Source: Owenia fusiformis (Eukaryota; Annelida; Polychaeta; Sabellida; Oweniidae). Taken from it: DNA of 64,000 nucleotides. Where the stretch lies: the NCBI GenBank assembly GCA_903813345.2, contig CAIIXF020000007.1, forward strand, positions 7,135,730 to 7,199,729, in the 5' to 3' direction. Shown in pieces: positions 3,351 through 35,500 of this stretch. The stretch's first letter is position 1. The number at the start of each line of letters is the position of its first letter. The notes under the pieces were generated by a model. It searched no databases. It was not told the DNA's origin and worked only from the letters and a program-made list of their open reading frames with translations. The translations under genes were made by a program, and so were the position numbers.

Positions 3351-3702
3351 TTCACATCAACCCTTATATATTTGCACAGAATTTCGTTCTGTGTTTTCAT
3401 TAACTCTTTAACCACAGTTCATTCTAATGTGCTGCAACCTAAGTGGGATTGAAATAGGATAACTCTTCCACGAAACCACTCTGCTTAGACATAAACCCGT
3501 TTCAGTAAGTGATAACTCGAAAGTTTCTTCCAAATCCATTACAAGATGATGTTTGAAACATTGTAAAATAAGAGAGCAAGGTTTCGATACTCTGCACGCT
3601 TCTACTACGCCACTCTGTTGTGATACAAACCTGATTTAGTAAGTAATCACTCGAAAGTTTATATTCAGTGAATTACAAATGTTTTGACACATTGCAAAAT
3701 AT

Positions 3703-3774
3703 TAGCAGAGCAATGTTTCGATCCTCAGACCTCTGGGCTATGGGCCAAGCATGCTTTCACTGCACCGCTCTGCT
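3703..3774 (-). pseudogene. tRNA-iMet(CAT) array 1 unit 1, decayed
   Basis: Anticodon CAT is kept, but the anticodon stem, T stem and D arm carry several changes from the consensus. Confidence 0.6.
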
Positions 3775-4103
3775 ATGATACGAAGCTGTTACATCAAGTA
3801 ATCACTCGTAGGTATATTTTTCTAATGGATTACAAATGTTTGGGTATATTGCAAAATATTAGGCAGAGCAGCACGCTTCCACTGCGCAACTCTGCTACGA
3901 TACGAAGCTGTTTCCATTAAGTAATCACTCGTAAGTTTGTTTTCAGTGGATTACAAATGTTTTGAAATATTGCAAAATAATATAATCATTCGTAAGTTTG
4001 TTTTCAGTGGATTACAAATGTTTTGAAATATTGCAAAATAATGTAATCACTCGAAAGTTTATTTTCAACGGAGTACAAATGTCTTGAAATACTGAAAAAA
4101 TAT

Positions 4104-4175
4104 TAGCAGAGCAAGGTTACAATCCTCGGGCATCTGGGTTATGGGCCCAGGACGCTTCCACTGCGCCACTCTGCT
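4104..4175 (-). tRNA. tRNA-iMet(CAT) array 1 unit 2
   Basis: T-loop and variable-region changes; anticodon arm intact. Confidence 0.6.
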
Positions 4176-4260
4176 ATGATACGAAAATGTATCAGTAAGT
4201 AATCACTCGAAAGTTTATTTTTTCAATGGATTACAAACGTTTTGATATATTGCAAAATAT

Positions 4261-4332
4261 TAGCAGAGCAAGGTTTCGATCCTCGGACCTCTGGGTTATG
4301 GGCCCAGCACGCTTCCACTGCGCCACTCTGCT
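4261..4332 (-). tRNA. tRNA-iMet(CAT) array 1 unit 3
   Basis: Consensus 72-nt copy. Confidence 0.9.
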
Positions 4333-4420
4333 ATGATACGAAGCTGTTATGTCAAGTATCACTCGAAAGTTTTTTTTCAATGAATTACAAATACAAATGT
4401 TTTTATATATTGCAAAACAT

Positions 4421-4492
4421 TAGCAGAGCAAGGTTTCGATCCTCGGACCTCTGGGTTATGGGCCCAGCACGCTTCCACTGCGCCACTCTGCT
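4421..4492 (-). tRNA. tRNA-iMet(CAT) array 1 unit 4
   Basis: Consensus copy. Confidence 0.9.
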
Positions 4493-4579
4493 ATGACACG
4501 AAGCTGTTACATAAAGAAATCACTCGAAAGTCTTTTTTTTCAATGGGTTACAAATGTTTTGATATATATTGCAAAATAT

Positions 4580-4651
4580 TAGCAGAGCAAGGTTTCGATC
4601 CTCGGACCTCTGGGTTATGGGCCCAGCACGCTTCCACTGCGCCACTCTGCT
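4580..4651 (-). tRNA. tRNA-iMet(CAT) array 1 unit 5
   Basis: Consensus copy. Confidence 0.9.
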
Positions 4652-4735
4652 ATGATACTAAGCTGTTACGTCAAGTAATGACTCGAAAGTTATTTTTCCA
4701 ATGAATTACAAAAGTTTTTATATATTGCAAAATAT

Positions 4736-4807
4736 TAGCAGAGCAAGGTTTCGATCCTCGGACCTCTGGGTTATGGGCCCAGCACGCTTCCACTGCGCCA
4801 CTCTGCT
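4736..4807 (-). tRNA. tRNA-iMet(CAT) array 1 unit 6
   Basis: Consensus copy. Confidence 0.9.
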
Positions 4808-4891
4808 ATGATACTAAGCTGTTACGTCAAGTAATGACTCGAAAGTTATTTTTTCAATGAATTACAAAAGTTTTGATATATTGCAAAATAT

Positions 4892-4963
4892 TAGCAGAGC
4901 AAGGTTTCGATCCTCGGACCTCTGGGTTATGGGCCCAGCACGCTTCCACTGCGCCACTCTGCT
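4892..4963 (-). tRNA. tRNA-iMet(CAT) array 1 unit 7
   Basis: Consensus copy. Confidence 0.9.
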
Positions 4964-5047
4964 ATGATACTAAGCTGTTACGTCAAGAAATGACTCGAAA
5001 GTTATTTTTTCAATGAATTACAAAAGTTTTGATATATTGCAAAATAT

Positions 5048-5119
5048 TAGCAGAGCAAGGTTTCGATCCTCGGACCTCTGGGTTATGGGCCCAGCACGCT
5101 TCCACTGCGCCACTCTGCT
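5048..5119 (-). tRNA. tRNA-iMet(CAT) array 1 unit 8
   Basis: Consensus copy. Confidence 0.9.
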
Positions 5120-5203
5120 ATGATACTAAGCTGTTACGTCAAGTAATGACTCGAAAGTTATTTTTTCAATGAATTACAAAAGTTTTGATATATTGCAAAA
5201 TAT

Positions 5204-5275
5204 TAGCAGAGCAAGGTTTCGATCCTCGGACCTCTGGGTTATGGGCCCAGCACGCTTCCACTGCGCCACTCTGCT
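5204..5275 (-). tRNA. tRNA-iMet(CAT) array 1 unit 9
   Basis: Consensus copy. Confidence 0.9.
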
Positions 5276-5359
5276 ATGATACGAAGCTGCTACGTCAAGT
5301 AATCACTCGAAAATTATTTTTTCAATGAATTACAAAAGTTTTGATATATTGCAAAATAT

Positions 5360-5431
5360 TAGCAGAGCAAGGTTTTGATCCTCGGACCTCTGGGTTATGG
5401 GCCCAGCACACTTCCACTGCGCCACTCTGCT
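5360..5431 (-). tRNA. tRNA-iMet(CAT) array 1 unit 10
   Basis: One T-loop change (GATCAAAACC in the B box) and one D-stem change. Confidence 0.7.
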
Positions 5432-5515
5432 ATGATACTAAGCTGTTACGTCAAGTAATGACTCGAAAGTTATTTTTTCAATGAATTACAAAAGTTTTGA
5501 TATATTGCAAAATAT

Positions 5516-5586
5516 TAGCAGAGCAAGGTTTCGATCCTCGGACCTCTGGGTTATGGGCCCAGCACGCTTCCACTCGGCACTCTGCT
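5516..5586 (-). pseudogene. tRNA-iMet(CAT) array 1 unit 11, D-arm deletion
   Basis: 71 nt; the D arm/A box is altered and one base short. Rest is consensus. Confidence 0.6.
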
Positions 5587-5670
5587 ATGATACGAAGCTG
5601 TTACGTCAAGTAATCACTCGAAAATTATTTTTTCAATGAATTACAAAAGTTTTGATATATTGCAAAATAT

Positions 5671-5742
5671 TAGCAGAGCAAGGTTTTGATGATCGGACCT
5701 CTGAGTTATGGGCCCAGCATGCTTCTACTGTGCCACTCTGCT
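5671..5742 (-). pseudogene. tRNA-iMet(CAT) array 1 unit 12, decayed
   Basis: Member of the subclass with altered T arm, anticodon stem and D arm; CAT kept. Confidence 0.6.
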
Positions 5743-5828
5743 ATGACAGGAAGCTGTTACATAAAGTAATCACTCGAAAGTCTTTTTTTCAATGGGTTAC
5801 AAATGTTTTGATATATATTGCAAAATAT

Positions 5829-5900
5829 TAGCAGAGCAAGGTTTCGATCCTCGGACCTCTGGGTTATGGGCCCAGCACGCTTCCACTGCGCCACTCTGCT
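5829..5900 (-). tRNA. tRNA-iMet(CAT) array 1 unit 13
   Basis: Consensus copy. Confidence 0.9.
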
Positions 5901-5976
5901 ATGATACTAAGCTAAGTAATGACTCGAAAGTTATTTTTTCAATGAATTACAAAAGTTTTGATATATTGCAAAATAT

Positions 5977-6048
5977 TAGCAGAGCAAGGTTTCGAACCTC
6001 GGACCTCTGGGTTATGGGCCCAGCACGCTTCCACTGCGCCACTCTGCT
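5977..6048 (-). tRNA. tRNA-iMet(CAT) array 1 unit 14
   Basis: A54 of the T loop is replaced by T, giving an elongator-like TTCGAAA loop; otherwise consensus. Confidence 0.8.
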
Positions 6049-6132
6049 ATAATACGAAGCTGCTACGTCAAGTAATCACTCGAAAATTATTTTTTCAATG
6101 AATTACAAAAGTTTTGATATATTGCAAAATAT

Positions 6133-6204
6133 TAGCAGAGCAAGGTTTTGATCCTCGGACCTCTGGGTTATGGGCCCAGCACGCTTCCACTGCGCCACTC
6201 TGCT
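6133..6204 (-). tRNA. tRNA-iMet(CAT) array 1 unit 15
   Basis: Single T-loop change in the B box. Confidence 0.8.
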
Positions 6205-6288
6205 ATGATACTAAGCTGTTACGTCAAGTAATGACTCGAAAGTTATTTTTTCAATGAATTACAAAAGTTGTGATATATTGCAAAATAT

Positions 6289-6359
6289 TAGCAGAGCAAG
6301 GTTTCGATCCTCGGACCTCTGGGTTATGGGCCCAGCACGCTTCCACTTGGCACTCTGCT
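6289..6359 (-). pseudogene. tRNA-iMet(CAT) array 1 unit 16, D-arm deletion
   Basis: 71 nt; D-arm change similar to the unit at 5516. Confidence 0.6.
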
Positions 6360-6443
6360 ATGATACGAAGCTGTTACGTCAAGTAATCACTCGAAAATTA
6401 TTTTTTCAATGAATTACAAAAGTTTTGATATATTGCAAAATAT

Positions 6444-6515
6444 TAGCAGAGCAAGGTTTTGATCATCGGACCTCTGAGTTATGGGCCCAGCATGCTTCTT
6501 CTGTGCCACTCTGCT
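6444..6515 (-). pseudogene. tRNA-iMet(CAT) array 1 unit 17, decayed subclass
   Basis: Altered T arm, anticodon stem and D arm; near-identical copies recur at 8563 and 9345. Confidence 0.6.
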
Positions 6516-6602
6516 ATGACACGAAGCTGTTACATAAAGTAATCACTCGAAAGTCTTTTTTTTCAATGGGTTACAAATGTTTTGATATATATTGCAAAAT
6601 AT

Positions 6603-6674
6603 TAGCAGAGCAAGGTTTCGCTCCTCGGACCTCTGGGTTATGGGCCCAGCACGCTTCCACTGCGCCACTCTGCT
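6603..6674 (-). tRNA. tRNA-iMet(CAT) array 1 unit 18
   Basis: One T-loop change in the B box (GGAGCGAAACC). Confidence 0.75.
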
Positions 6675-6758
6675 ATGATCCTAAGCTTTTACGTCAAGTA
6701 ATGACTCGAAAGTTATTTTTCCAATGAATTACAAAAGTTTTTATATATTGCAAAATAT

Positions 6759-6830
6759 TAGCAGAGCAAGGTTTCGATCCTCGGACCTATGGGTTATGGG
6801 CCCAGCACGCTTCCACTGCGCCACTCTGCT
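6759..6830 (-). tRNA. tRNA-iMet(CAT) array 1 unit 19
   Basis: Position 43 changed, opening the outer anticodon-stem pair; otherwise consensus. First of the units with this change. Confidence 0.8.
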
Positions 6831-6897
6831 ATGTCAAGTAATGACTCGAAAGTAATTTTTCAATGAATTACAAAAGTTTTGATATATTGCAAAATAT

Positions 6898-6969
6898 TAG
6901 CAGAGCAAGGTTTCGATCCTCGGACCTCTGGGTTATGGGCCCAGCACGCTTCCACTGCGCCACTCTGCT
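6898..6969 (-). tRNA. tRNA-iMet(CAT) array 1 unit 20
   Basis: Consensus copy after a short (139-bp) spacing. Confidence 0.9.
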
Positions 6970-7053
6970 ATGATACTAAGCTTTTACGTCAAGTAATGAC
7001 TCGAAAGTTATTTTTCCAATGAATTACAAAAGTTTTTATATATTGCAAAATAT

Positions 7054-7125
7054 TAGCAGAGCAAGGTTTTGATCATCGGACCTCTGAGTTATGGGCCCAG
7101 CACGCTTCCACTGCGCCACTCTGCT
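7054..7125 (-). tRNA. tRNA-iMet(CAT) array 1 unit 21
   Basis: T-arm changes (GATGATCAAAACC) and one anticodon-stem change; D arm consensus. Confidence 0.6.
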
Positions 7126-7209
7126 ATGATCCTAAGCTTTTACGTCAAGTAATGACTCGAAAGTTATTTTTCCAATGAATTACAAAAGTTTTTATATATT
7201 GCAAAATAT

Positions 7210-7281
7210 TAGCAGAGCAAGGTTTTGATCATCGGACCTCTGAGTTATGGGCCCAGCACGCTTCCACTGCGCCACTCTGCT
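7210..7281 (-). tRNA. tRNA-iMet(CAT) array 1 unit 22
   Basis: Same T-arm and anticodon-stem changes as the unit at 7054. Confidence 0.6.
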
Positions 7282-7365
7282 ATGATACTAAGCTTTTACG
7301 TCAAGTAATGACTCGAAAGTTATTTTTCCAATGAATTACAAAAGTTTTGATATATTGCAAAATAT

Positions 7366-7437
7366 TAGCAGAGCAAGGTTTCGATCCTCGGACCTATGGG
7401 TTATGGGCCCAGCACGCTTCCACTGCGCCACTCTGCT
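7366..7437 (-). tRNA. tRNA-iMet(CAT) array 1 unit 23
   Basis: Position-43 variant. Confidence 0.8.
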
Positions 7438-7521
7438 ATGATCCTAAGCTTTTACGTCAAGTAATGACTCGAAAGTTATTTTTCCAATGAATTACAAAAG
7501 TTTTTATATATTGCAAAATAT

Positions 7522-7593
7522 TAGCAGAGCAAGGTTTCGATCCTCGGACCTATGGGTTATGGGCCCAGCACGCTTCCACTGCGCCACTCTGCT
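7522..7593 (-). tRNA. tRNA-iMet(CAT) array 1 unit 24
   Basis: Position-43 variant; followed by the short spacer. Confidence 0.8.
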
Positions 7594-7660
7594 ATGTCAA
7601 GTAATGACTCGAAAGTAATTTTTCAATGAATTACAAAAGTTTTGATATATTGCAAAATAT

Positions 7661-7732
7661 TAGCAGAGCAAGGTTTCGATCCTCGGACCTATGGGTTATG
7701 GGCCCAGCACGCTTCCACTGCGCCACTCTGCT
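7661..7732 (-). tRNA. tRNA-iMet(CAT) array 1 unit 25
   Basis: Position-43 variant. Confidence 0.8.
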
Positions 7733-7816
7733 ATGATCCTAAGCTTTTACGTCAAGTAATGACTCGAAAGTTATTTTTCCAATGAATTACAAAAGTTTTT
7801 ATATATTGCAAAATAT

Positions 7817-7888
7817 TAGCAGAGCAAGGTTTCGATCCTCGGACCTATGGGTTATGGGCCCAGCACGCTTCCACTGCGCCACTCTGCT
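7817..7888 (-). tRNA. tRNA-iMet(CAT) array 1 unit 26
   Basis: Position-43 variant; short spacer follows. Confidence 0.8.
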
Positions 7889-7955
7889 ATGTCAAGTAAT
7901 GACTCGAAAGTAATTTTTCAATGAATTACAAAAGTTTTGATATATTGCAAAATAT

Positions 7956-8027
7956 TAGCAGAGCAAGGTTTCGATCCTCGGACCTATGGGTTATGGGCCC
8001 AGCACGCTTCCACTGCGCCACTCTGCT
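7956..8027 (-). tRNA. tRNA-iMet(CAT) array 1 unit 27
   Basis: Position-43 variant. Confidence 0.8.
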
Positions 8028-8111
8028 ATGATCCTTAGCTTTTACGTCAAGTAATGACTCGAAAGTTATTTTTCCAATGAATTACAAAAGTTTTTATATA
8101 TTGCAAAATAT

Positions 8112-8183
8112 TAGCAGAGCAAGGTTTCGATCCTCGGACCTATGGGTTATGGGCCCAGCACGCTTCCACTGCTCCACTCTGCT
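8112..8183 (-). tRNA. tRNA-iMet(CAT) array 1 unit 28
   Basis: Position-43 variant plus one D-stem change. Confidence 0.75.
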
Positions 8184-8267
8184 ATGATCCTAAGCTTTTA
8201 CGTCAAGTAATGACTCGAAAGTTATTTTTCCAATGAATTACAAAAGTTTTTATATATTGCAAAATAT

Positions 8268-8339
8268 TAGCAGAGCAAGGTTTCGATCCTCGGACCTATG
8301 GGTTATGGGCCCAGCACGCTTCCACTGCGCCACTCTGCT
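8268..8339 (-). tRNA. tRNA-iMet(CAT) array 1 unit 29
   Basis: Position-43 variant; short spacer follows. Confidence 0.8.
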
Positions 8340-8406
8340 ATGTCAAGTAATGACTCGAAAGTAATTTTTCAATGAATTACAAAAGTTTTGATATATTGCA
8401 AAATAT

Positions 8407-8478
8407 TAGCAGAGCAAGGTTTTGATCATCGGACCTCTGAGTTATGGGCCCAGCACGCTTCCACTGCGCCACTCTGCT
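8407..8478 (-). tRNA. tRNA-iMet(CAT) array 1 unit 30
   Basis: T-arm/anticodon-stem variant as at 7054. Confidence 0.6.
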
Positions 8479-8562
8479 ATGATACTAAGCTTTTACGTCA
8501 AGTAATGACTCGAAAGTTATTGTTCCAATGAATTACAAAAGTTTTGATATATTGCAAAATAT

Positions 8563-8634
8563 TAGCAGAGCAAGGTTTTGATCATCGGACCTCTGAGTTA
8601 TGGGCCCAGCATGCTTCTTCTGTGCCACTCTGCT
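8563..8634 (-). pseudogene. tRNA-iMet(CAT) array 1 unit 31, decayed subclass
   Basis: Copy of the subclass seen at 6444. Confidence 0.6.
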
Positions 8635-8720
8635 ATGACACGAAACTGTTACATAAAGTAATCACTCGAAAGTCTTTTTTTCAATGGGTTACAAATGTTT
8701 TGATATATATTGCAAAATAT

Positions 8721-8792
8721 TAGCAGAGCAAGGTTTCGATCCTCGGACCTCTGGGTTATGGGCCCAGCACGCTTCCACTGCGCCACTCTGCT
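8721..8792 (-). tRNA. tRNA-iMet(CAT) array 1 unit 32
   Basis: Consensus copy. Confidence 0.9.
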
Positions 8793-8876
8793 ATGATACT
8801 AAGCTTTTACGTCAAGTAATGACTCGAAAGTTATTTTTCCAATGAATTACAAAAGTTTTTATATATTGCAAAATAT

Positions 8877-8948
8877 TAGCAGAGCAAGGTTTCGATCCTC
8901 GGACCTATGGGTTATGGGCCCAGCACGCTTCCACTGCGCCACTCTGCT
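8877..8948 (-). tRNA. tRNA-iMet(CAT) array 1 unit 33
   Basis: Position-43 variant. Confidence 0.8.
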
Positions 8949-9032
8949 ATGATCCTAAGCTTTTACGTCAAGTAATGACTCGAAAGTTATTTTTCCAATG
9001 AATTACAAAAGTTTTGATATATTGCAAAATAT

Positions 9033-9104
9033 TAGCAGAGCAAGGTTTCGATCCTCGGACCTCTGAGTTATGGGCCCAGCACGCTTCCACTGCGCCACTC
9101 TGCT
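9033..9104 (-). tRNA. tRNA-iMet(CAT) array 1 unit 34
   Basis: One anticodon-stem change; T arm consensus. Confidence 0.75.
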
Positions 9105-9188
9105 ATGATACTAAGCTTTTACGTCAAGTAATGACTCGAAAGTTATTTTTCCAATGAATTACAAAAGTTTTTATATATTGCAAAATAT

Positions 9189-9260
9189 TAGCAGAGCAAG
9201 GTTTTGATCATCGGACCTCTGAGTTATGGGCCCAGCACGCTTCCACTGCGCCACTCTGCT
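9189..9260 (-). tRNA. tRNA-iMet(CAT) array 1 unit 35
   Basis: T-arm/anticodon-stem variant as at 7054. Confidence 0.6.
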
Positions 9261-9344
9261 ATGATACTAAGCTTTTACGTCAAGTAATGACTCGAAAGTT
9301 ATTTTTCCAATGAATTACAAAAGTTTTTATATATTGCAAAATAT

Positions 9345-9416
9345 TAGCAGAGCAAGGTTTTGATCATCGGACCTCTGAGTTATGGGCCCAGCATGCTTCT
9401 TCTGTGCCACTCTGCT
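9345..9416 (-). pseudogene. tRNA-iMet(CAT) array 1 unit 36, decayed subclass
   Basis: Copy of the subclass seen at 6444. Confidence 0.6.
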
Positions 9417-9553
9417 ATGACACGAAACTGTTACATAAAGTAATCACTCGAAAGTCTTTTTTTCAATGGGTTACAAATGATTTGATAAATATTGCAAAAT
9501 ATTTTTTTTTCAATGAATTACAAATACAAATGTTTTTATATAATGCAAAATAT

Positions 9554-9625
9554 TAGCAGAGCAAGGTTTCGATCCTCGGACCTCTGGGTTATGGGCCCAG
9601 CACGCTTCCACTGCGCCACTTTGCT
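9554..9625 (-). tRNA. tRNA-iMet(CAT) array 1 unit 37
   Basis: Single acceptor-stem mismatch; otherwise consensus. Confidence 0.8.
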
Positions 9626-9710
9626 ATGATACTAAGCTGTTACGTCAAGTAATCACTCGAAAGTTTATTTTTTCAATGGATTACAAACGTTTTGATATAT
9701 TGCAAAATAT

Positions 9711-9782
9711 TAGCAGAGCAAGGTTTCGATCCTCGGACCTCTGGATTATGGGCCCAGCATGCTTCCACTGCGCAGCTCTGCT
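9711..9782 (-). tRNA. tRNA-iMet(CAT) array 1 unit 38 (edge unit)
   Basis: Scattered changes in D arm and anticodon stem; the unit nearest the LINE insertion. Confidence 0.6.
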
Positions 9783-9810
9783 ATTATATAAAGCTGATTC
9801 AGTAAGTAAT

Positions 9811-10650
9811 ATATATATCTTTTATTGACTCTCTTATGTCATTGCAATGACATAATAGTCACTACAAACTACAATATGCAAAATTAAACTAAGACTAAAC
9901 TAACTACTTCATAGGAAATATACAAAGTTGTAAAATACAATTACAGCATCACAAAATGTAAAATACAAAAATATGAGATAGTTGTAAAATACAAATACAA
10001 ATACAACATGACAGAATTTAAAACATCAGTGTGATGTATCATTGTCACAATATTAATCCAGTTTTTTGAATGAATGATAAATGAACTTTGCTAGATGTAA
10101 AATTACATACGAATTTTTATGAGACAAAAGCTTTTTGAAAATAAAATCAGGACTTCCTACAAAATTAAATTGTGTAAGGGTGTCAAACAGAAATTTTCTT
10201 TCTGTTGTATTTTTCTTACACATCATGATAAAGTGTTGTTCATCTTCTAAAATACCACACACATTACATAAACGTTCATCCAAAGGTCTTGGCTTAGGCT
10301 TCAAATGACGACCAATTTCAATATGTAATTTGTGTGAACTAAGCCTAAATCTACTAATTGCTTGTCTGTAATTTTTATTTTGTATATTTAAATAACCCTC
10401 TCTTTCAAAGACATTTTTGAATGTTACGGAAGTTCTTAAAACAGGATATTTGAAAATGTCTTTCTGCCATTGAGACTTATTATTCTGATACAGTTTTTTT
10501 GTTATCATCTTGATAAAAATATAATCATCATCAATCTTTTGAGTTCCCCAATATGAGAATAAATCACTTTTTTAAAATATCAGTGATTTTGTTTGACCAA
10601 GTGCCTTTAAAACCCAGTTGGCTCATTTCAAGGTCATGCGTATATGTTTT
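9811..10650 (-). mobile_element. 5'-truncated LINE inserted in the array 1 edge spacer
   Basis: A minus-strand frame at 10053-10508 (151 codons) has the C-terminal layout of non-LTR reverse-transcriptase polyproteins: the phrase SRFRLSSHKLHIEIGRH, then a CCHC zinc-knuckle-like motif (ERLCNVCG...HFIMMC). The frame continues upstream in the same register to about 10563 with a YWG motif, but no palm-domain motifs are present, so only the 3' end was inserted. The downstream 3' region ends in an AT repeat at about 9811-9819. Array spacer stops at 9810 and resumes at 10651 (CACTAGAAAGTTTATTCAG), so the element split a spacer. No clear target duplication was seen. Clade not assigned. Confidence 0.8.
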
Positions 10651-13528: not shown

Positions 13529-13529
13529 A

Positions 13530-18415: not shown

Positions 18416-18487
18416 AGCAGAGTGGCGCAGTGGAAGCGTGCTGGGCCCATAACCCAGAGGTCCGAGGATCGAAACCTTGCTCTGCTA
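18416..18487 (+). tRNA. tRNA-iMet(CAT) array 2 unit 21
   Basis: Consensus copy. Confidence 0.9.
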
Positions 18488-18577
18488 ATATTTTGCCAAA
18501 GTTCTCGAACATCCCTTCAATCATTTCTAGCATAGAATGTATTCTGGATTGCGAACAGTATATGTGTGCTATCAGAA

Positions 18578-18649
18578 AGCAGAGTGGCGCAGTTGAAACG
18601 TGCTGGGCCCATAACCCAGAGAACCGAGGATCGAAACCTTGCTCTGCTA
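18578..18649 (+). tRNA. tRNA-iMet(CAT) array 2 unit 22
   Basis: D-arm and variable-region changes. Confidence 0.75.
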
Positions 18650-18746
18650 ACATTTTTGCCAAAGGTCTCGAACATCTCTTTAATCATTTCAAACATAGCA
18701 TGTATTCTACATTTATATTGCGAACAGGATATGTGTGCTATCAGAA

Positions 18747-18818
18747 AGCAGAGTGGCGCAGTGGAAGCGTGCTGGGCCCATAACCCAGAGGTCCGAGGAT
18801 CGAAACCTTGCTCTGCTA
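18747..18818 (+). tRNA. tRNA-iMet(CAT) array 2 unit 23
   Basis: Consensus copy. Confidence 0.9.
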
Positions 18819-18914
18819 ATATTTTGCCAAAGGTCTCGAACATCTCTTTAATCATTTCAAACATAGCATGTATTCTACATGTATATTGCGAACAAGATAT
18901 TTGTGCTATCAGAA

Positions 18915-18986
18915 AGCAGAGTGGCGCAGTGGAAGCGTGCTGGGCCCATAACCCAGAGGTCCGAGGATCGAAACCTTGCTCTGCTA
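18915..18986 (+). tRNA. tRNA-iMet(CAT) array 2 unit 24
   Basis: Consensus copy. Confidence 0.9.
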
Positions 18987-19075
18987 ATATTTTGCCAAAG
19001 TTCTCGAACATCCCTTCAATCATTTCTAGCATAGCATGTATTCTTGACCGGAACAGGATATGTGTGCTATCAGAA

Positions 19076-19147
19076 AGCAGAGTTGTGCAGTGGAAGCCTG
19101 CTTGGCCTATAATGCAGAGGTCCGAGGATCGAAACCTTGCTCTGCTA
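19076..19147 (+). tRNA. iMet-like tRNA, anticodon TAT, array 2 unit 25
   Basis: TAT; copy of unit 15 at +1,771 bp. Confidence 0.6.
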
Positions 19148-19237
19148 ATATTTTGCTAAAGTTCTCGAACATCCCTTCAATCATTTCTAGCATAGCATGT
19201 ATTCTAGATTGTGAACAGGATATATATGCTATCAGAA

Positions 19238-19309
19238 AGCAGAGTGGCGCAGTGGAAGCGTGCTTGGCCCATAACCCAGAGGTCCGAGGATCGAAACCTT
19301 GCTCTGCTA
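19238..19309 (+). tRNA. tRNA-iMet(CAT) array 2 unit 26
   Basis: One anticodon-stem change. Confidence 0.8.
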
Positions 19310-19405
19310 ACATTTTGCCAAAGGTCTCGAACATCTCTTTAATCATTTCAAACATAGCATGTATTCTACATGTATATTGCGAACAGGATATGTGTGCTAT
19401 CAGAA

Positions 19406-19477
19406 AGCAGAGTGGCCCAGTGGAAGCGTGCTGGGCCCATAACCCAGAGGTCCGAGGATCGAAACTTTGCTCTGCTA
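19406..19477 (+). tRNA. tRNA-iMet(CAT) array 2 unit 27
   Basis: Same A-box and T-stem changes as unit 17. Confidence 0.75.
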
Positions 19478-19573
19478 ATATTTTGCCAAAGGTCTCGAAC
19501 ATCTCTTTAATCATTTCAAACATAGCATGTATTCTACATGTATATTGCGAACAGGATATCTGTGCTATCAGAA

Positions 19574-19645
19574 AGCAGAGTGGCGCAGTGGAAGCGTGCT
19601 GGGCCCATAACCCAGAGGTCCGAGGATCGAAACCTTGCTCTGCTA
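19574..19645 (+). tRNA. tRNA-iMet(CAT) array 2 unit 28
   Basis: Consensus copy. Confidence 0.9.
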
Positions 19646-19734
19646 ATATTTTGCCAAAGTTCTCGAACATCCCTTCAATCATTTCTAGCATAGCATTTAT
19701 TCTTGACCGGAACAGGCTATGTGTGCTATCAGAA

Positions 19735-19806
19735 AGCAGAGTTGTGCAGTGGAAGCGTGCTTGGCCTATAATGCAGAGGTCCGAGGATCGAAACCTTGCT
19801 CTGCTA
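19735..19806 (+). tRNA. iMet-like tRNA, anticodon TAT, array 2 unit 29
   Basis: TAT; variant A box. Confidence 0.65.
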
Positions 19807-19896
19807 ATATTTTGCTAAAGTTCTCGAACATCCCTTCAATCATTTCTAGCATAGCATGTATTCTACATTGCGAACAGGATATATGTGCTACCAGAA

Positions 19897-19968
19897 AGCA
19901 GAGTGGCGCAGTGGAAGCGTGCTGGGCCCATAACCCAGAGGTCCGAGGATCGAAACCTTGCTCTGCTA
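19897..19968 (+). tRNA. tRNA-iMet(CAT) array 2 unit 30
   Basis: Consensus copy. Confidence 0.9.
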
Positions 19969-20058
19969 ATATTTTGCCAAAGTTCTCGAAAATCCCTTCA
20001 ATCATTTCTAGCATAGCATGTATTCTAGATTGCGAACAGGATATGTGTGCTACCAGAA

Positions 20059-20130
20059 AGCAGAGTGGCGCAGTGGAAGCGTGCTGGGCCCATAACCCAG
20101 AGGTCCGAGGATCGAAACCTTGCTCTGCTA
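20059..20130 (+). tRNA. tRNA-iMet(CAT) array 2 unit 31
   Basis: Consensus copy. Confidence 0.9.
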
Positions 20131-20219
20131 ATATTTTGCCAAAGTTCTCGAAAATCCCTTCAATCATTTCTAGCATAGCATTTATTCTTGACCGGAACAG
20201 GCTATGTGTGCTATCAGAA

Positions 20220-20291
20220 AGCAGAGTGGCGCAGTGGAAGCGTGCTGGGCCCATAACCCAGAGGTCCGATGATCGAAACCTTGCTCTGCTA
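20220..20291 (+). tRNA. tRNA-iMet(CAT) array 2 unit 32
   Basis: One T-stem change. Confidence 0.8.
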
Positions 20292-20381
20292 ATATTTTGC
20301 CAAAGTTCTCGAACATCCCTTCAATCATTTCTAGCATAGCATGTATTCCTGATTGCGAACAGGATATGTGTGCTATCAGAA

Positions 20382-20453
20382 AGCAGAGTGGCGCAGTGGA
20401 GGCCTGCTTGGCCTATAACGCAGAGGTCCGAGGATTGAAACCTTGCTCTGCTA
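20382..20453 (+). tRNA. iMet-like tRNA, anticodon TAT, array 2 unit 33
   Basis: TAT; consensus A box; B-box change as in unit 7. Confidence 0.6.
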
Positions 20454-20543
20454 ATATTTTGCCAAAGTTCTCGAACATCCCTTCAATCATTTCTAGCATA
20501 GCATGTATTCTTGATTGCAAACAGGATATGTGTGCTATCAGAA

Positions 20544-20615
20544 AGCAGAGTTGTGCAGTGGAAGCGTGCTTTGCCTATAATGCAGAGGTCCGAGGATCGA
20601 AACCTTGCTCTGCTA
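20544..20615 (+). tRNA. iMet-like tRNA, anticodon TAT, array 2 unit 34
   Basis: TAT; variant A box. Confidence 0.65.
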
Positions 20616-20913
20616 ATATTTTGCTAAAGTTCTCGAACATCCCTTCAATCATTTCTAGCATAGCATGTATTCTAGATTGCGAACAGGATTGTGTGCTATC
20701 AGAAACCCAGAGGTCCGAGGATCGAAACCTTGCTCTGCTAATATTTTGCCAAAGTTCTCGAACATCCCTTCAATCATTTATAGCATAGCATGTATTCTAG
20801 ATTGCGAACAGGATATGTGTGGTCTCGAACATCTCTTTAATCATTTCAAACATAGCATGTAGACTAATGTATTTTAGGTGTATATTGCGAACAGGATATG
20901 TGTGCTATCAGAA

Positions 20914-20985
20914 AGCAGAGTGGCGCAGTGGAAGCGTGCTGGGCCCATAACCCAGAGGTCCGAGGATCGAAACCTTGCTCTGCTA
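20914..20985 (+). tRNA. tRNA-iMet(CAT) array 2 unit 35
   Basis: Consensus; duplicate of unit 6 at +5,077 bp. Confidence 0.9.
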
Positions 20986-21075
20986 ATATTTTGTCAAAGT
21001 TCTCGAACATCCCTTCAATCATTTCTAGCATAGCATGTATTCTTGATTGCGAACAGGATATGTGTGCTATCAGAA

Positions 21076-21147
21076 AGCAGAGTGGCGCAGTGGAAGCCTG
21101 CTTGGCCTATAACGCAGAGGTCCGAGGATTGAAACCTTGCTCTGCTA
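21076..21147 (+). tRNA. iMet-like tRNA, anticodon TAT, array 2 unit 36
   Basis: Duplicate of unit 7. Confidence 0.65.
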
Positions 21148-21237
21148 ATATTTTGCCAAAGTTCTCGAACATCCCTTCAATCATTTCTAGCATAGCATGT
21201 ATTCTTGATTGCGAACAGGATATGTGTGCTATCAGAA

Positions 21238-21309
21238 AGCAGAGTTGTGCAGTGGAAGCGTGCTTTGCCTATAATGCAGAGGTCCGAGGATCGAAACCTT
21301 GCTCTGCTA
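21238..21309 (+). tRNA. iMet-like tRNA, anticodon TAT, array 2 unit 37
   Basis: Duplicate of unit 8. Confidence 0.65.
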
Positions 21310-21399
21310 ATATTTTGCTAAAGTTCTCGAACATCCCTTCAATCATTTCTAGCATAGCATGTATTCTGGATTGCGAACATTATATGTGTGCTATCAGAA

Positions 21400-21471
21400 A
21401 GCAGAGTGGCGCAGTTGAAGCGTGCTGGGCCCATAACCCAGAGGTCCGAGGATCGAAACCTTGCTCTGCTA
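21400..21471 (+). tRNA. tRNA-iMet(CAT) array 2 unit 38
   Basis: Duplicate of unit 9. Confidence 0.85.
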
Positions 21472-21561
21472 ATATTTTGCCAAAGTTCTCGAACATCCCT
21501 TCAATCATTTGAAGCATAGCATGTATTCTTGATTGCGAACAGAATATGTGTGCTATCCAAA

Positions 21562-21632
21562 AGCAGAGCTGGCAGTGGAAGCGTGCTTGGCCTATAATGC
21601 AGAGGTCCGAGGATCGAAACCTTGCTCTGCTA
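21562..21632 (+). pseudogene. iMet-like tRNA, anticodon TAT, array 2 unit 39, D-arm deletion
   Basis: Duplicate of unit 10. Confidence 0.55.
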
Positions 21633-21723
21633 ATATTTTGCTGAAGTTTCTCGAACATCCCTTCAATTATTTGTAGCATAGCATGTATTCTAGATTGCGA
21701 ACAGGATATCTGTGCTATCAGAA

Positions 21724-21795
21724 AGCAGAGTGGCGCAGTGGAAGCGTGCTGGGCCCATAACCCAGAGGTCCGAGGATCGAAACCTTTCTCTGCTA
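21724..21795 (+). tRNA. tRNA-iMet(CAT) array 2 unit 40
   Basis: Duplicate of unit 11. Confidence 0.85.
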
Positions 21796-21885
21796 ATATT
21801 TTGCCAAAGTTCTCGAACATCCCTTCAATCATTTCTAGCATAGCATGTATTCTAAATTGCGAACATTATATGTGTGCTATCAGAA

Positions 21886-21957
21886 AGCAGAATGGCGCAG
21901 TTGAAGCGTGCTGGGCCCATAACCCAGAGGTCCGAGGATCGAAACCTTGCTCTGCTA
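21886..21957 (+). tRNA. tRNA-iMet(CAT) array 2 unit 41
   Basis: Duplicate of unit 12. Confidence 0.8.
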
Positions 21958-22052
21958 ACATTTTGCCAAAGGTCTCGAACATCTCTTTAATCATTTCAAA
22001 CATAGCATTATTCTAGATGTATATTGCGAACAGGATATGTGTGCTATCAGAA

Positions 22053-22124
22053 AGCAGAGTGGCGCAGTGGAAGCGTGCTGGGCCCCTAACCCAGAGGTCC
22101 GAGGATCGAAACTTTGCTCTGCTA
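22053..22124 (+). tRNA. iMet-like tRNA, anticodon CCT, array 2 unit 42
   Basis: Duplicate of unit 13, keeping the CCT change. Confidence 0.65.
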
Positions 22125-22220
22125 ATATTTTGCCAAAGGTCTCGAACATCTCTTTAATCATTTCAAACATAGCATGTATTCTACATGTATATTGCGAACA
22201 GGATATCTGTGCTATCAGAA

Positions 22221-22292
22221 AGCAGAGTGGCGCAGTGGAAGCGTGCTGGGCCCATAACCCAGAGGTCCGAGGATCGAAACCTTGCTCTGCTA
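22221..22292 (+). tRNA. tRNA-iMet(CAT) array 2 unit 43
   Basis: Consensus copy. Confidence 0.9.
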
Positions 22293-22381
22293 ATATTTTG
22301 CCAAAGTTCTCGAACATCCCTTCAATCATTTCTAGCATAGCATGTATTCTTGACCGGAACAGGATATGTGTGCTATCAGAA

Positions 22382-22453
22382 AGCAGAGTTGTGCAGTGGA
22401 AGCCTGCTTGGCCTATAATGCAGAGGTCCGAGGATCGAAACCTTGCTCTGCTA
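22382..22453 (+). tRNA. iMet-like tRNA, anticodon TAT, array 2 unit 44
   Basis: Duplicate of unit 15. Confidence 0.6.
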
Positions 22454-22543
22454 ATATTTTGCTAAAGTTCTCGAACATCCCTTCAATCATTTCTAGCATA
22501 GCATGTATTCTAGATTGTGAACAGGATATATATGCTATCAGAA

Positions 22544-22615
22544 AGCAGAGTGGCGCAGTGGAAGCGTGCTGGGCCCATAACCCAGAGGTCCGAGGATCGA
22601 AACCTTGCTCTGCTA
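22544..22615 (+). tRNA. tRNA-iMet(CAT) array 2 unit 45
   Basis: Consensus copy. Confidence 0.9.
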
Positions 22616-22711
22616 ACATTTTGCCAAAGGTCTCGAACATCCCTTTAATCATTTCAAACATAGCATGTATTCTACATGTATATTGCGAACAGGATATGTG
22701 TGCTATCAGAA

Positions 22712-22783
22712 AGCAGAGTGGCCCAGTGGAAGCGTGCTGGGCCCATAACCCAGAGGTCCGAGGATCGAAACTTTGCTCTGCTA
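22712..22783 (+). tRNA. tRNA-iMet(CAT) array 2 unit 46
   Basis: Duplicate of unit 17 (A-box change). Confidence 0.75.
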
Positions 22784-22879
22784 ATATTTTGCCAAAGGTC
22801 TCGAACATCTCTTTAATCATTTCAAACATAGCATGTATTCTACATGTATATTGCGAACAGGATATCTGTGCTATCAGAA

Positions 22880-22951
22880 AGCAGAGTGGCGCAGTGGAAG
22901 CGTGCTGGGCCCATAACCCAGAGGTCCGAGGATCGAAACCTTGCTCTGCTA
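22880..22951 (+). tRNA. tRNA-iMet(CAT) array 2 unit 47
   Basis: Consensus copy. Confidence 0.9.
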
Positions 22952-23166
22952 ATATTTTGCCAAAGTTCTCGAACATCCCTTCAATCATTTCTAGCATAGC
23001 ATTTATTCTCGACCGGAACAGGCTATGTGTGCCATCTTGCTCTGCTAATATTTTGCCAAAGTTCTCGAACATCTCTTCAATCATTTCAAACATAGCATGT
23101 ATTAATCATTTCAAACATAGCATGTATTCTACATGTATATTGCGAACAGGATATGTGCTATCAGAA

Positions 23167-23238
23167 AGCAGAGTGGCGCAGTGGAAGCGTGCTGGGCCCA
23201 TAACCCAGAGGTCCGAGGATCGAAACCTTGCTCTGCTA
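23167..23238 (+). tRNA. tRNA-iMet(CAT) array 2 unit 48
   Basis: Consensus copy. Confidence 0.9.
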
Positions 23239-23330
23239 ATATTTTGCCAAAGTTCTCGAACATCCCTTCAATCATTTTTCTAGCATAGCATGTATTCTTG
23301 ATTGCGAACAAGATATGTGTGCTATCAGAA

Positions 23331-23402
23331 AGCAGAGTTGTGCAGTGGAAGCGTGCTTGGCCTATAATGCAGGGGTCCGAGGATCGAAACCTTGCTCTGC
23401 TA
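23331..23402 (+). tRNA. iMet-like tRNA, anticodon TAT, array 2 unit 49
   Basis: Duplicate of unit 20. Confidence 0.6.
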
Positions 23403-23492
23403 ATATTTTGCTAAAGTTCTCGAACATCCCTCCAATCATTTCTAGCATAGCATGTATTCTAGATTGCGAACAGGATATATGTGCTATCAGAA

Positions 23493-23564
23493 AGCAGAGT
23501 GGCGCAGTGGAAGCGTGCTGGGCCCATAACCCAGAGGTCCGAGGATCGAAACCTTGCTCTGCTA
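23493..23564 (+). tRNA. tRNA-iMet(CAT) array 2 unit 50
   Basis: Consensus copy. Confidence 0.9.
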
Positions 23565-23654
23565 ATATTTTGCCAAAGTTCTCGAACATCCCTTCAATCA
23601 TTTCTAGCACAGAATGTATTCTGGATTGCGAACAGTATATGTGTGCTATCAGAA

Positions 23655-23726
23655 AGCAGAGTGGCGCAGTTGAAACGTGCTGGGCCCATAACCCAGAGAA
23701 CCGAGGATCGAAACCTTGCTCTGCTA
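23655..23726 (+). tRNA. tRNA-iMet(CAT) array 2 unit 51
   Basis: Duplicate of unit 22. Confidence 0.75.
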
Positions 23727-23823
23727 ACATTTTTGCCAAAGGTCTCGAACATCTCTTTAATCATTTCAAACATAGCATGTATTCTACATTTATATTGCGA
23801 ACAGGATATGTGTGCTATCAGAA

Positions 23824-23895
23824 AGCAGAGTGGCGCAGTGGAAGCGTGCTGGGCCCATAACCCAGAGGTCCGAGGATCGAAACCTTGCTCTGCTA
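23824..23895 (+). tRNA. tRNA-iMet(CAT) array 2 unit 52
   Basis: Consensus copy. Confidence 0.9.
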
Positions 23896-23991
23896 ATATT
23901 TTGCCAAAGGTCTCGAACATCTCTTTAATCATTTCAAACATAGCATGTATTCTACATGTATATTGCGAACAAGATATTTGTGCTATCAGAA

Positions 23992-24063
23992 AGCAGAGTG
24001 GCGCAGTGGAAGCGTGCTGGGCCCATAACCCAGAGGTCCGAGGATCGAAACCTTGCTCTGCTA
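23992..24063 (+). tRNA. tRNA-iMet(CAT) array 2 unit 53
   Basis: Consensus copy. Confidence 0.9.
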
Positions 24064-24152
24064 ATATTTTGCCAAAGTTCTCGAACATCCCTTCAATCAT
24101 TTCTAGCATAGCATGTATTCTTGACCGGAACAGGATATGTGTGCTATCAGAA

Positions 24153-24224
24153 AGCAGAGTTGTGCAGTGGAAGCCTGCTTGGCCTATAATGCAGAGGTCC
24201 GAGGATCGAAACCTTGCTCTGCTA
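24153..24224 (+). tRNA. iMet-like tRNA, anticodon TAT, array 2 unit 54
   Basis: Duplicate of unit 25. Confidence 0.6.
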
Positions 24225-24314
24225 ATATTTTGCTAAAGTTCTCGAACATCCCTTCAATCATTTCTAGCATAGCATGTATTCTAGATTGTGAACAGGATAT
24301 ATATGCTATCAGAA

Positions 24315-24386
24315 AGCAGAGTGGCGCAGTGGAAGCGTGCTTGGCCCATAACCCAGAGGTCCGAGGATCGAAACCTTGCTCTGCTA
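24315..24386 (+). tRNA. tRNA-iMet(CAT) array 2 unit 55
   Basis: Duplicate of unit 26. Confidence 0.8.
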
Positions 24387-24482
24387 ACATTTTGCCAAAG
24401 GTCTCGAACATCTCTTTAATCATTTCAAACATAGCATGTATTCTACATGTATATTGCGAACAGGATATGTGTGCTATCAGAA

Positions 24483-24554
24483 AGCAGAGTGGCCCAGTGG
24501 AAGCGTGCTGGGCCCATAACCCAGAGGTCCGAGGATCGAAACTTTGCTCTGCTA
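24483..24554 (+). tRNA. tRNA-iMet(CAT) array 2 unit 56
   Basis: Duplicate of unit 27 (A-box change). Confidence 0.75.
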
Positions 24555-24650
24555 ATATTTTGCCAAAGGTCTCGAACATCTCTTTAATCATTTCAAACAT
24601 AGCATGTATTCTACATGTATATTGCGAACAGGATATCTGTGCTATCAGAA

Positions 24651-24722
24651 AGCAGAGTGGCGCAGTGGAAGCGTGCTGGGCCCATAACCCAGAGGTCCGA
24701 GGATCGAAACCTTGCTCTGCTA
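24651..24722 (+). tRNA. tRNA-iMet(CAT) array 2 unit 57
   Basis: Consensus copy. Confidence 0.9.
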
Positions 24723-24811
24723 ATATTTTGCCAAAGTTCTCGAACATCCCTTCAATCATTTCTAGCATAGCATTTATTCTTGACCGGAACAGGCTATGTG
24801 TGCTATCAGAA

Positions 24812-24883
24812 AGCAGAGTTGTGCAGTGGAAGCGTGCTTGGCCTATAATGCAGAGGTCCGAGGATCGAAACCTTGCTCTGCTA
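24812..24883 (+). tRNA. iMet-like tRNA, anticodon TAT, array 2 unit 58
   Basis: Duplicate of unit 29. Confidence 0.65.
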
Positions 24884-24973
24884 ATATTTTGCTAAAGTTC
24901 TCGAACATCCCTTCAATCATTTCTAGCATAGCATGTATTCTACATTGCGAACAGGATATATGTGCTACCAGAA

Positions 24974-25045
24974 AGCAGAGTGGCGCAGTGGAAGCGTGCT
25001 GGGCCCATAACCCAGAGGTCCGAGGATCGAAACCTTGCTCTGCTA
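24974..25045 (+). tRNA. tRNA-iMet(CAT) array 2 unit 59
   Basis: Consensus; last full unit of the duplicated segment. Confidence 0.9.
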
Positions 25046-25135
25046 ATATTTTGCCAAAGTTCTCGAACATCCCTTCAATCATTTCTAGCATAGCATGTAT
25101 TCTAGGTTGCGAACAGTATATGTGTGCTATCAGAA

Positions 25136-25206
25136 AGCAGAGTGGCGCAGTGCAACGCGCTGGGCCCATAACCCAGAGGTCCTAGGATCGAAACCTTGCT
25201 CTGCTA
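25136..25206 (+). pseudogene. tRNA-iMet(CAT) array 2 unit 60, decayed
   Basis: 71 nt with D-arm and T-stem changes. Confidence 0.65.
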
Positions 25207-25296
25207 ATATTTTGCCAAAGTTCTCGAACATCCCTTCAATCATTTCTAGCATATCATGTATTCTAGATTGCGAACAGGATATGTGTGTTATCAGAA

Positions 25297-25369
25297 AGCA
25301 GAGTGGCGCAGTGGAAGCGTGCTGGGCCCATAACCCAGAGGTCCGATGGTCGAAACCTTAGTTCTGCTG
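25297..25369 (+). pseudogene. tRNA-iMet(CAT) array 2 unit 61, edge copy
   Basis: T-arm changes and a one-base insertion in the 3' acceptor strand. Confidence 0.6.
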
Positions 25370-26010
25370 GTATTTTGTCAAAATTCTTAAACATCCCTTC
25401 AATCATTTATTCTATAGAAGTATAAAATGCAGGATAGGCATGCTATGTGAAAGCAGGGTGTTCCAGTGGAAGCGGGGTGTGCCCATAAGTCCGAGTATTG
25501 AAACCTTGCTCAGCTGCTATTTTGCCCATAACCCAGAGGTCCGAGGAACGGAACCTTGCTCAGCTATTTTTTTCAATCATTTAAAACATTGCTGGTATTC
25601 TCGCTTATATAAGAACGAATTCAGGCCTCCTAGACTTCCAACAACGCGAACATCAGTTCTGATACCGCGAACTACGTTCCTTGCACTCGAACCACGAATC
25701 TCATATCGCGAACGTGAAATCTTATGTCGCGCACCACCATTTCCTTGTTTCCGAACATATTTCTTGTACCGCGCACAAAGATCCGTTACCGCGAACCACG
25801 CATCTGATCAAAAAAAGTCCGTAATTTTGTTCGTATTATTACGCATAAGTATAATTCCAAAGAGGTGTTTTCATCTGGAATTCGGAAGAAATATTTTCCC
25901 AGTTTTTCATGCATGTAAATGAATATCCAATCATTGACGATAACAGTATTTTCAAGCTCTGGGAAACACAAGATATTGGGACTACCTTGCAATCACGCGC
26001 ATTGACATTT

Positions 26011-35495: not shown

Positions 35496-35500
35496 CTTAG

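What the first reader, a model, noticed from the sequence alone, without database searches (positions are those of the whole stretch)
3571..25570. Two divergent arrays with 99 full-length initiator-tRNA units
Thirty-eight minus-strand and 61 plus-strand units, each with its own A box, B box and T4 terminator, sit in two arrays 4.9 kb apart. Thirty-two match the CAT consensus exactly. Animal genomes usually carry a modest number of dispersed initiator genes, so this is either extreme amplification of functional tRNA or a tRNA-born satellite. Both arrays share only the tRNA and the ATATTTTGC 3' flank, so a small tRNA-plus-terminator seed may have been amplified twice with different spacers.
Basis: partly seen in the sequence, partly recalled or inferred. 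Interest (0 to 1): 0.85.

Follow-up and report, generated by a model that had tools for sequence, protein, structure and literature searches.

The report
Two tandem arrays of initiator-tRNA genes
An invertebrate chromosome carries two opposite-facing blocks with 99 copies of the tRNA gene that starts protein synthesis, about 40 of them apparently intact and the rest altered, in a genome that groups several other tRNA genes in tandem as well.

Summary
The arrays are real: 38 minus-strand and 61 plus-strand units, 32 identical to one 72-base initiator-tRNA consensus, T4 after all 99. "99 initiator tRNAs" overstates it: 20 of 61 plus-strand units have lost the CAT anticodon, and 38 of 99 pass a strict test (cloverleaf, CAT, initiator marks, T4). 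The same 72-mer occurs at ten other places, six of them clustered on C1. Spacer 1 and a 27-base piece of spacer 2 were found only at this locus; the spacers do not resemble each other beyond nine bases. Other tRNAs are also grouped in tandem: Lys next door, elongator-Met-like genes with introns in two opposite-facing arrays, Asn, smaller Arg and Gln groups. Close published precedents exist: 90 tRNA-Ser copies with 80-bp spacers in Nippostrongylus, tRNA arrays in Hydractinia. Best reading: initiator-tRNA genes amplified and turned over by unequal exchange, leaving intact, probably transcribed genes among altered copies. Constraint is modest in array 1 and weak or absent in array 2, so an inert satellite is not excluded. 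New member of a known kind.

The parts
3573..9815 (-). Array 1: 38 full-length iMet units (3703-9782) plus partial pieces at 3573-3617 and 3869-3896; period about 156 bp (72 bp tRNA + 84 bp spacer)
4261..5275 (-). Seven consecutive units identical to the 72-nt consensus
14690..25566 (+). Array 2: 61 full-length units (14807-25368) plus partial units at 14690, 15627, 20704, 25452 and 25524; period about 162-168 bp (72 bp tRNA, spacers mostly 89-97 bp)
15613..20075 (+). First copy of a 5077-bp-offset duplication inside array 2 (boundaries approximate)
   Evidence: eight mismatches to the second copy between 15613 and 20075, three of them at 20029-20053 near the boundary
20690..25152 (+). Second copy of that duplication (boundaries approximate), 25 full-length units
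14807..24883 (+). 17 interspersed TAT-class units (14807, 15999, 16161, 16485, 17305, 18254, 19076, 19735, 20382, 20544, 21076, 21238, 21562, 22382, 23331, 24153, 24812) with a changed anticodon arm; ARAGORN calls them tRNA-Tyr(ATA)
13528..13598 (-). Isolated degenerate iMet copy between the arrays; no T4 directly downstream
28525..28648 (+). Isolated fragment derived from array 2 (tRNA plus about 54 bp of the array-2 spacer)
33342..33454 (+). Intron-bearing tRNA-Ile(TAT), one of five in the window (also 33701-33813 -, 54469-54581 +, 56351-56463 +, 57209-57321 +); neighbouring tRNA genes, not part of the arrays
   Evidence: isotype assigned by recalled resemblance

Best explanation
Two tandem arrays of the initiator-tRNA (iMet) gene with unrelated spacers, made and turned over by unequal crossing-over or segmental duplication, in a genome that groups tRNA genes in tandem at several other places. 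Shown: repeated iMet units followed by T4; 32 consensus-identical units; altered units amplified together with good ones; a recent 5-kb duplication inside array 2; the same 72-mer at other loci with unrelated flanks. Inferred: the intact units (about 38 by strict criteria) are transcribed by Pol III from their A and B boxes, end at T4 and add to the iMet pool, perhaps mainly where demand peaks, as with the oocyte-specific tRNA arrays of Xenopus. The other units are probably weak genes or pseudogenes carried along.
For: Both array consensuses are identical to ten iMet genes elsewhere with unrelated flanks. T4 is intact in 99 of 99 units; in the non-duplicated array-2 set (33 units) only 2 of 87 spacer 4-mer windows are fully conserved and TTTT is one of them; in array 1 (36 units) 15 of 81 are. 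Mean pairwise diversity is lower in the tRNA than in the spacer: 0.049 vs 0.088 in array 1 (32 of 38 units), 0.065 vs 0.088 in array 2 (57 of 61), bootstrap intervals of the difference excluding zero. Array 1 has fewer distinct changes in the tRNA (23 in 72 sites) than in the spacer (46 in 84), p = 0.006. For unequal exchange: the 5077-bp duplication, mean identity falling with distance in array 1, partial units at the ends of both arrays. Other tandem tRNA groups exist in this genome.
Against: Array 2 shows no deficit of distinct changes in the tRNA (34 in 72 sites, 31 of 61 units) against the spacer (43 in 90), p = 1. 20 of its 61 units have lost CAT. Conservation of the A and B boxes lies within the range of spacer windows in both arrays, and the A box of array 2 is below the spacer median. 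Units are related by duplication, so the tests are not on independent samples. Strongly altered units also lie inside the arrays, not only at the ends, and identity does not fall with distance in array 2. No expression, Pol III or chromatin data could be examined.
Confidence: 0.66

Rival explanations
1. An inert satellite born from a tRNA gene: units spread by neutral unequal exchange and are not used; the iMet supply comes from the ten other genes.
For: Altered units are amplified along with good ones (20 of 61 array-2 units without CAT). No deficit of distinct changes in the array-2 tRNA. Ten exact iMet genes elsewhere; of these, four have a first T run of five or more and five more have T4 followed closely by TTTATTTT, whereas array units mostly have a bare T4. 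Spacer matches were found only at this locus.
Against: tRNA diversity is below spacer diversity in both arrays. T4 is intact in all 99 units. 32 units keep the exact sequence of the genes elsewhere.
Confidence: 0.25
2. Assembly expansion or false duplication: the true locus has far fewer units, or the 5-kb duplication joins two haplotypes.
For: The two 4.46-kb copies in array 2 differ at eight positions, which could be allelic.
Against: Apart from that duplication (lag 29, identity 0.972) mean identity at lags 1-28 in array 2 is 0.877-0.914, so the units are not copies of a few reads. The window has no N. The 115 iMet matches listed lie on C1, C7, C10 and C12, none on the small contigs. Removing the 25 units of the second copy would still leave 74.
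Confidence: 0.06
3. A tRNA-derived SINE or other retroposon inserted repeatedly.
For: The unit is a tRNA head plus unrelated sequence; a fragment with tRNA plus array-2 spacer lies apart at 28525.
Against: Spacer matches were found only at this locus (the full 90-base spacer 2 was not scored). Units are head-to-tail at near-constant spacing. The iMet search lists no dispersed degenerate copies outside the window except one next to the C1 cluster.
Confidence: 0.02
4. A chromatin element (overlaps with the other readings): Pol III factor binding at the arrays acts as boundary or clustering site and the RNA product is secondary.
For: T4 is kept in all units while the anticodon is lost in 20 of 61 array-2 units. 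Boundary roles of tRNA genes are recalled; that a tRNA tandem repeat is known in mammals is stated in PMC11067881.
Against: A and B boxes are not specially conserved against the spacer. No chromatin data.
Confidence: 0.08

Closest known systems
tRNA-Ser and tRNA-Trp tandem repeats of Nippostrongylus brasiliensis (PMC5765664; passages seen)
   Same: One tRNA gene plus a short lineage-specific spacer in a single long array: 90 copies with an 80-bp spacer (Ser), close to 150 copies of an about 200-bp repeat (Trp).
   Different: Different isotypes, and a nematode; here initiator tRNA, two opposite-facing arrays with unrelated spacers, and an interspersed altered-anticodon class.
ncRNA tandem arrays of Hydractinia and Nematostella (PMC11067881; passages, section 14 read)
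   Same: Animal genomes with tRNAs in tandem arrays; in Hydractinia evenly spaced arrays of tens or hundreds of similar copies.
   Different: [quoted passage not shown] here mostly 84-97 bp. [quoted passage not shown] I sampled only some isotypes.
[quoted passage not shown] passages seen)
   Same: Tandem tRNA arrays activated at zygotic genome activation; an iMet plasmid was the test gene there. This is the proposed mode of use.
   Different: Expression was not testable here. That the Xenopus repeat is a long unit holding several different tRNA genes is recalled.
tRNA arrays of Entamoeba (PMC2652664; passages seen)
   Same: tRNA genes in tandem arrays; intergenic sequence differs between species.
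   Different: In E. histolytica almost all tRNA genes are in arrays, with up to five genes per unit, over 10% of the genome.

Membership tests
Eukaryotic initiator tRNA (iMet) gene | CAT anticodon in a full cloverleaf | tested here: met
   Met by the consensus and its 32 exact copies. By unit: CAT in 38 of 38 and 41 of 61; full cloverleaf in 16 of 38 and 26 of 61
Eukaryotic initiator tRNA (iMet) gene | Initiator marks A1-U72, three G-C pairs at the anticodon stem end, A54, A60 (recalled definition) | tested here: met
   Met by the consensus; together with CAT, cloverleaf and T4 in 14 of 38 and 24 of 61 units
Eukaryotic initiator tRNA (iMet) gene | Transcribed by Pol III and charged with Met | not testable with these tools
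   No expression data
Tandem single-tRNA array | Head-to-tail tRNA + spacer units, spacer particular to the array | tested here: met
   TRF periods; units and spacers; spacer matches only at this locus (with a 27-base piece of spacer 2; the full 90-base search was not scored)
tRNA-derived SINE | Many dispersed copies with the same tRNA-unrelated body | tested here: not met
Inert satellite DNA | No excess conservation of the tRNA over the spacer | tested here: inconclusive
   Excess by diversity in both arrays; by distinct changes in array 1 but not array 2
Oocyte-type tRNA array as in Xenopus | Stage-specific Pol III activity | not testable with these tools
   No expression or chromatin data

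The most novel reading that the evidence does not exclude
The 17 TAT-class units of array 2 are a new tRNA species derived from iMet. All 17 share three changes (consensus positions 28, 33 and 39) that favour an anticodon stem moved by one position, with U33 and anticodon AUA. Four units (14807, 16161 and the two identical to 16161, at 20544 and 21238) form all six pairs of the new stem. If expressed, the array would be turning an initiator into an elongator-like or regulatory RNA in plain sight.
Probability: 0.04. Interest if true: 0.75.

Novelty: new member of a known kind. Interest (0 to 1): 0.38.

Why it matters
If the arrays are transcribed, they are a natural case of very high initiator-tRNA gene dosage, and array-specific trailers would let one ask which of dozens of near-identical genes are used and when. 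They also show a tRNA array in the course of growth and decay: exact genes, near-misses and an altered-anticodon class lie side by side with a very recent duplication. As an object it extends published tRNA tandem arrays to a named initiator case. I saw no initiator array of this size in the listings (few of the listed papers were opened), but the Hydractinia arrays cover all 20 amino acids and may include it.

Tried and rejected
SINE origin: rejected because spacer matches were found only at this locus. Homology between the two spacers: not supported (p 0.43 global and 0.85 local after dropping the first nine bases; 0.031 with them). CpG decay as a mark of methylated, silent units: 24 of 77 substitutions in array 1 and 17 of 163 in array 2 are CpG transitions; not decisive. 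Species identity: the COX1 search found nothing and the 18S search failed. PF16915, which I recall as an annelid haemoglobin linker domain, gave three matches over its cut-off on C6, one with a stop inside (its controls are prokaryotes, so they do not test specificity among animals). An annelid is my guess; the species is unknown. ORFs across the arrays are translations of repeated tRNA, not genes. Pfam on ten window ORFs: five had matches at E 0.01 or better, one (a PAN domain) over its cut-off; nothing links them to the arrays. The register-shift simulation (1.8e-4 for five and 3.7e-4 for six random changes in the arm) is post hoc and not a significance test; energies in both registers were computed for six of the 17 TAT-class units.

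Limits: genome searches score only the best candidates (63 of 33,560, 40 of 165, 40 of 494), so counts elsewhere are lower bounds and I cannot say this is the genome's largest tRNA array. Units used: diversity, 32 of 38 and 57 of 61 (spacer-length limits); distinct changes, 36 of 38 and 31 of 61; window conservation, 36 of 38 and 33 of 61 (second copy of the duplication and long spacers dropped).
Full report
Observation. A BLAST of the 72-nt consensus on the window gives 42 minus-strand and 67 plus-strand matches; 39 and 63 cover at least 68 consensus positions. Leaving out the isolated copies at 13528 and 28525 and the shortened one at 25452, there are 38 units in array 1 (minus, 3703-9782) and 61 in array 2 (plus, 14807-25368). 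Thirty-two are exact (10 and 22). Rfam lists 94 tRNAs in the window, five of them intron-bearing tRNA-Ile, so 89 array units pass its cut-off. ARAGORN lists 88. Units repeat every 156 bp in array 1 and about 162-168 bp in array 2. The counts in the finding are right.

What the units are. The consensus has CAT, C33, A1-U72, the three G-C pairs, A54 and A60 expected of an animal initiator (marks recalled; counted). By unit, CAT is kept in 38 of 38 and 41 of 61; a full cloverleaf in 16 of 38 and 26 of 61; all marks plus cloverleaf, CAT and T4 in 14 of 38 and 24 of 61. So 38 of 99 are strict initiator genes. The strict A-box motif is kept in 33 of 38 and 46 of 61 and the B box in 27 of 38 and 50 of 61, so 'each with its own A box and B box' is too strong. 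TTTT within 14 nt is kept in 99 of 99.

Elsewhere in the genome. The window lies in a 498-Mb, 525-contig assembly. The exact 72-mer occurs at ten places outside the window: six in a cluster at C1:46.153-46.156 Mb, of which four, with a shortened copy before them, are 189-192 bp apart; two singles on C1; one on C10; one on C12. The flanks of these genes are unrelated to the window arrays by eye, and in local alignments of 90-base and 60-base flanks the lowest chance values were 0.01-0.04 among 40 comparisons. Spacer 1 matches only array 1 (41 of 41 HSPs). A 27-base piece of spacer 2, with up to three mismatches, matches 61 places, all in array 2; the full spacer-2 search was not scored. The two spacers show no similarity past ATATTTTGC. 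ATATTTT also follows three of the four single iMet genes, so the shared nine bases are weak evidence for a common seed.

Other tandem tRNA groups. An array of ten ARAGORN genes, nine called Lys and one Glu, ends about 2.3 kb before the window. Five tRNA-Lys genes stand about 365 bp apart on C8. An elongator-Met query finds copies on C1 in two groups on opposite strands about 9 kb apart; the two stretches fetched hold eight and six Rfam tRNA matches in units of about 200 bp. I read them as elongator Met with introns of two lengths; ARAGORN, without introns, calls seven of the first group tRNA-SeC and none of the second. tRNA-Asn shows five copies about 172 bp apart on C11, and tRNA-Asp 15 copies over 48 kb on C4 (where 40 of 494 candidates were scored; no Gly or Phe row was among the 45 listed). 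tRNA-Arg and tRNA-Gln form small groups. Five of seven tRNA-Ile(TAT) matches in the genome lie in this window. The paired, opposite-strand layout of the iMet arrays is therefore seen at least once more in this genome.

How it evolves. Array 2 holds a 5077-bp-offset duplication with eight mismatches between 15613 and 20075; 25 of the 61 units lie in the second copy. Mean identity falls with distance in array 1 (0.89 at lag 1, 0.80 at lag 32) but not in array 2. Partial units lie at the ends of both arrays, although units with seven differences also lie inside. Some array-1 units combine a consensus first half with the second half of a divergent type (7054 and 7210). These are consistent with unequal exchange and conversion. 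Altered units are copied along with good ones.

Is it used? Mean pairwise diversity is lower in the tRNA than in the spacer: 0.049 vs 0.088 in array 1 and 0.065 vs 0.088 in array 2, bootstrap intervals of the difference excluding zero. Counting distinct changes, array 1 has 23 in 72 tRNA sites and 46 in 84 spacer sites (p = 0.006), but array 2 has 34 in 72 and 43 in 90 (p = 1). TTTT is fully conserved in both arrays, as are 2 of 87 spacer windows in array 2 and 15 of 81 in array 1, itself included. The A and B boxes (0.75 and 0.64 of units intact in array 1; 0.55 and 0.79 in array 2) lie within the range of spacer windows (medians 0.61 and 0.58). I read this as partial constraint: some units matter, or mattered until recently, and many do not. 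Transcription is inferred, not shown.

The TAT class. Seventeen array-2 units share changes in the anticodon arm. In the six for which I computed it, the normal register scores -5.4 to -9.7 kcal/mol and a register moved by one position -13.5 to -18.7; the consensus in its normal register scores -25.0. The moved register has U33 and anticodon AUA, and ARAGORN reads these units as tRNA-Tyr(ATA). Free folding gives no plain cloverleaf for the seven I folded, but it does not for the consensus either, so that says little. The simulation of chance was post hoc. Most likely these are pseudogenes.

Known relatives. Nippostrongylus brasiliensis has 90 copies of tRNA-Ser with an 80-bp spacer and close to 150 copies of an about 200-bp tRNA-Trp repeat (PMC5765664, passages). 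Hydractinia and Nematostella have tRNA tandem arrays (PMC11067881, section read). Xenopus has oocyte-specific tandem tRNA genes that are activated at the onset of zygotic transcription (PMC11500080, passages of a commentary). PMC2888827 (passages) reports wide variation in tRNA clustering among animals, with 89% of Nematostella tRNA loci clustered. The window arrays are a new member of this kind. The organism was not identified; three PF16915 matches make an annelid my guess.

Noticed in passing
G000:C7:7130645-7133382 (L014), about 2.3-5 kb before the window: Tandem array of ten ARAGORN tRNA genes (nine called Lys-TTT, one Glu), interleaved with partial copies.
   Followed up: partly
window 33342-57321: Five intron-bearing tRNA-Ile(TAT) genes, one pair in opposite orientation at 33342 and 33701; five of the seven genome matches lie here.
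   Followed up: partly
L036 and L037 (C1:40.061-40.063 and 40.072-40.073 Mb): Elongator-Met-like tRNA genes with introns of two lengths in two opposite-strand tandem arrays; introns in this isotype are, as I recall, unusual in animals.
   Followed up: partly
window 2044-3080 and 51214-52578: Two pairs of inverted 16-bp minisatellite blocks about 1 kb apart, looking like the ends of foldback-type mobile elements.
   Followed up: no
window 35500-36208: A 354-bp unit duplicated in tandem with 100% matches.
   Followed up: no
window 25618-25796 and 28328-28507: Inverted repeat of about 180 bp (96.7% identity) just after the end of array 2 and just before the stray array-2 fragment at 28525; it may mark a mobile element that carried the fragment.
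   Followed up: no
window 38715-39209: 13 copies of a 38-bp tandem repeat.
   Followed up: no
G000:C4:7364202-7412432: 15 tRNA-Asp copies on one strand at 0.7-9 kb spacing; the order of spacings partly repeats, suggesting a larger repeating unit.
   Followed up: no
L034 7496-7565 and 8991-9060 (after the window): Two further Rfam tRNA matches, one called tRNA-Lys(CTT) by ARAGORN.
   Followed up: no
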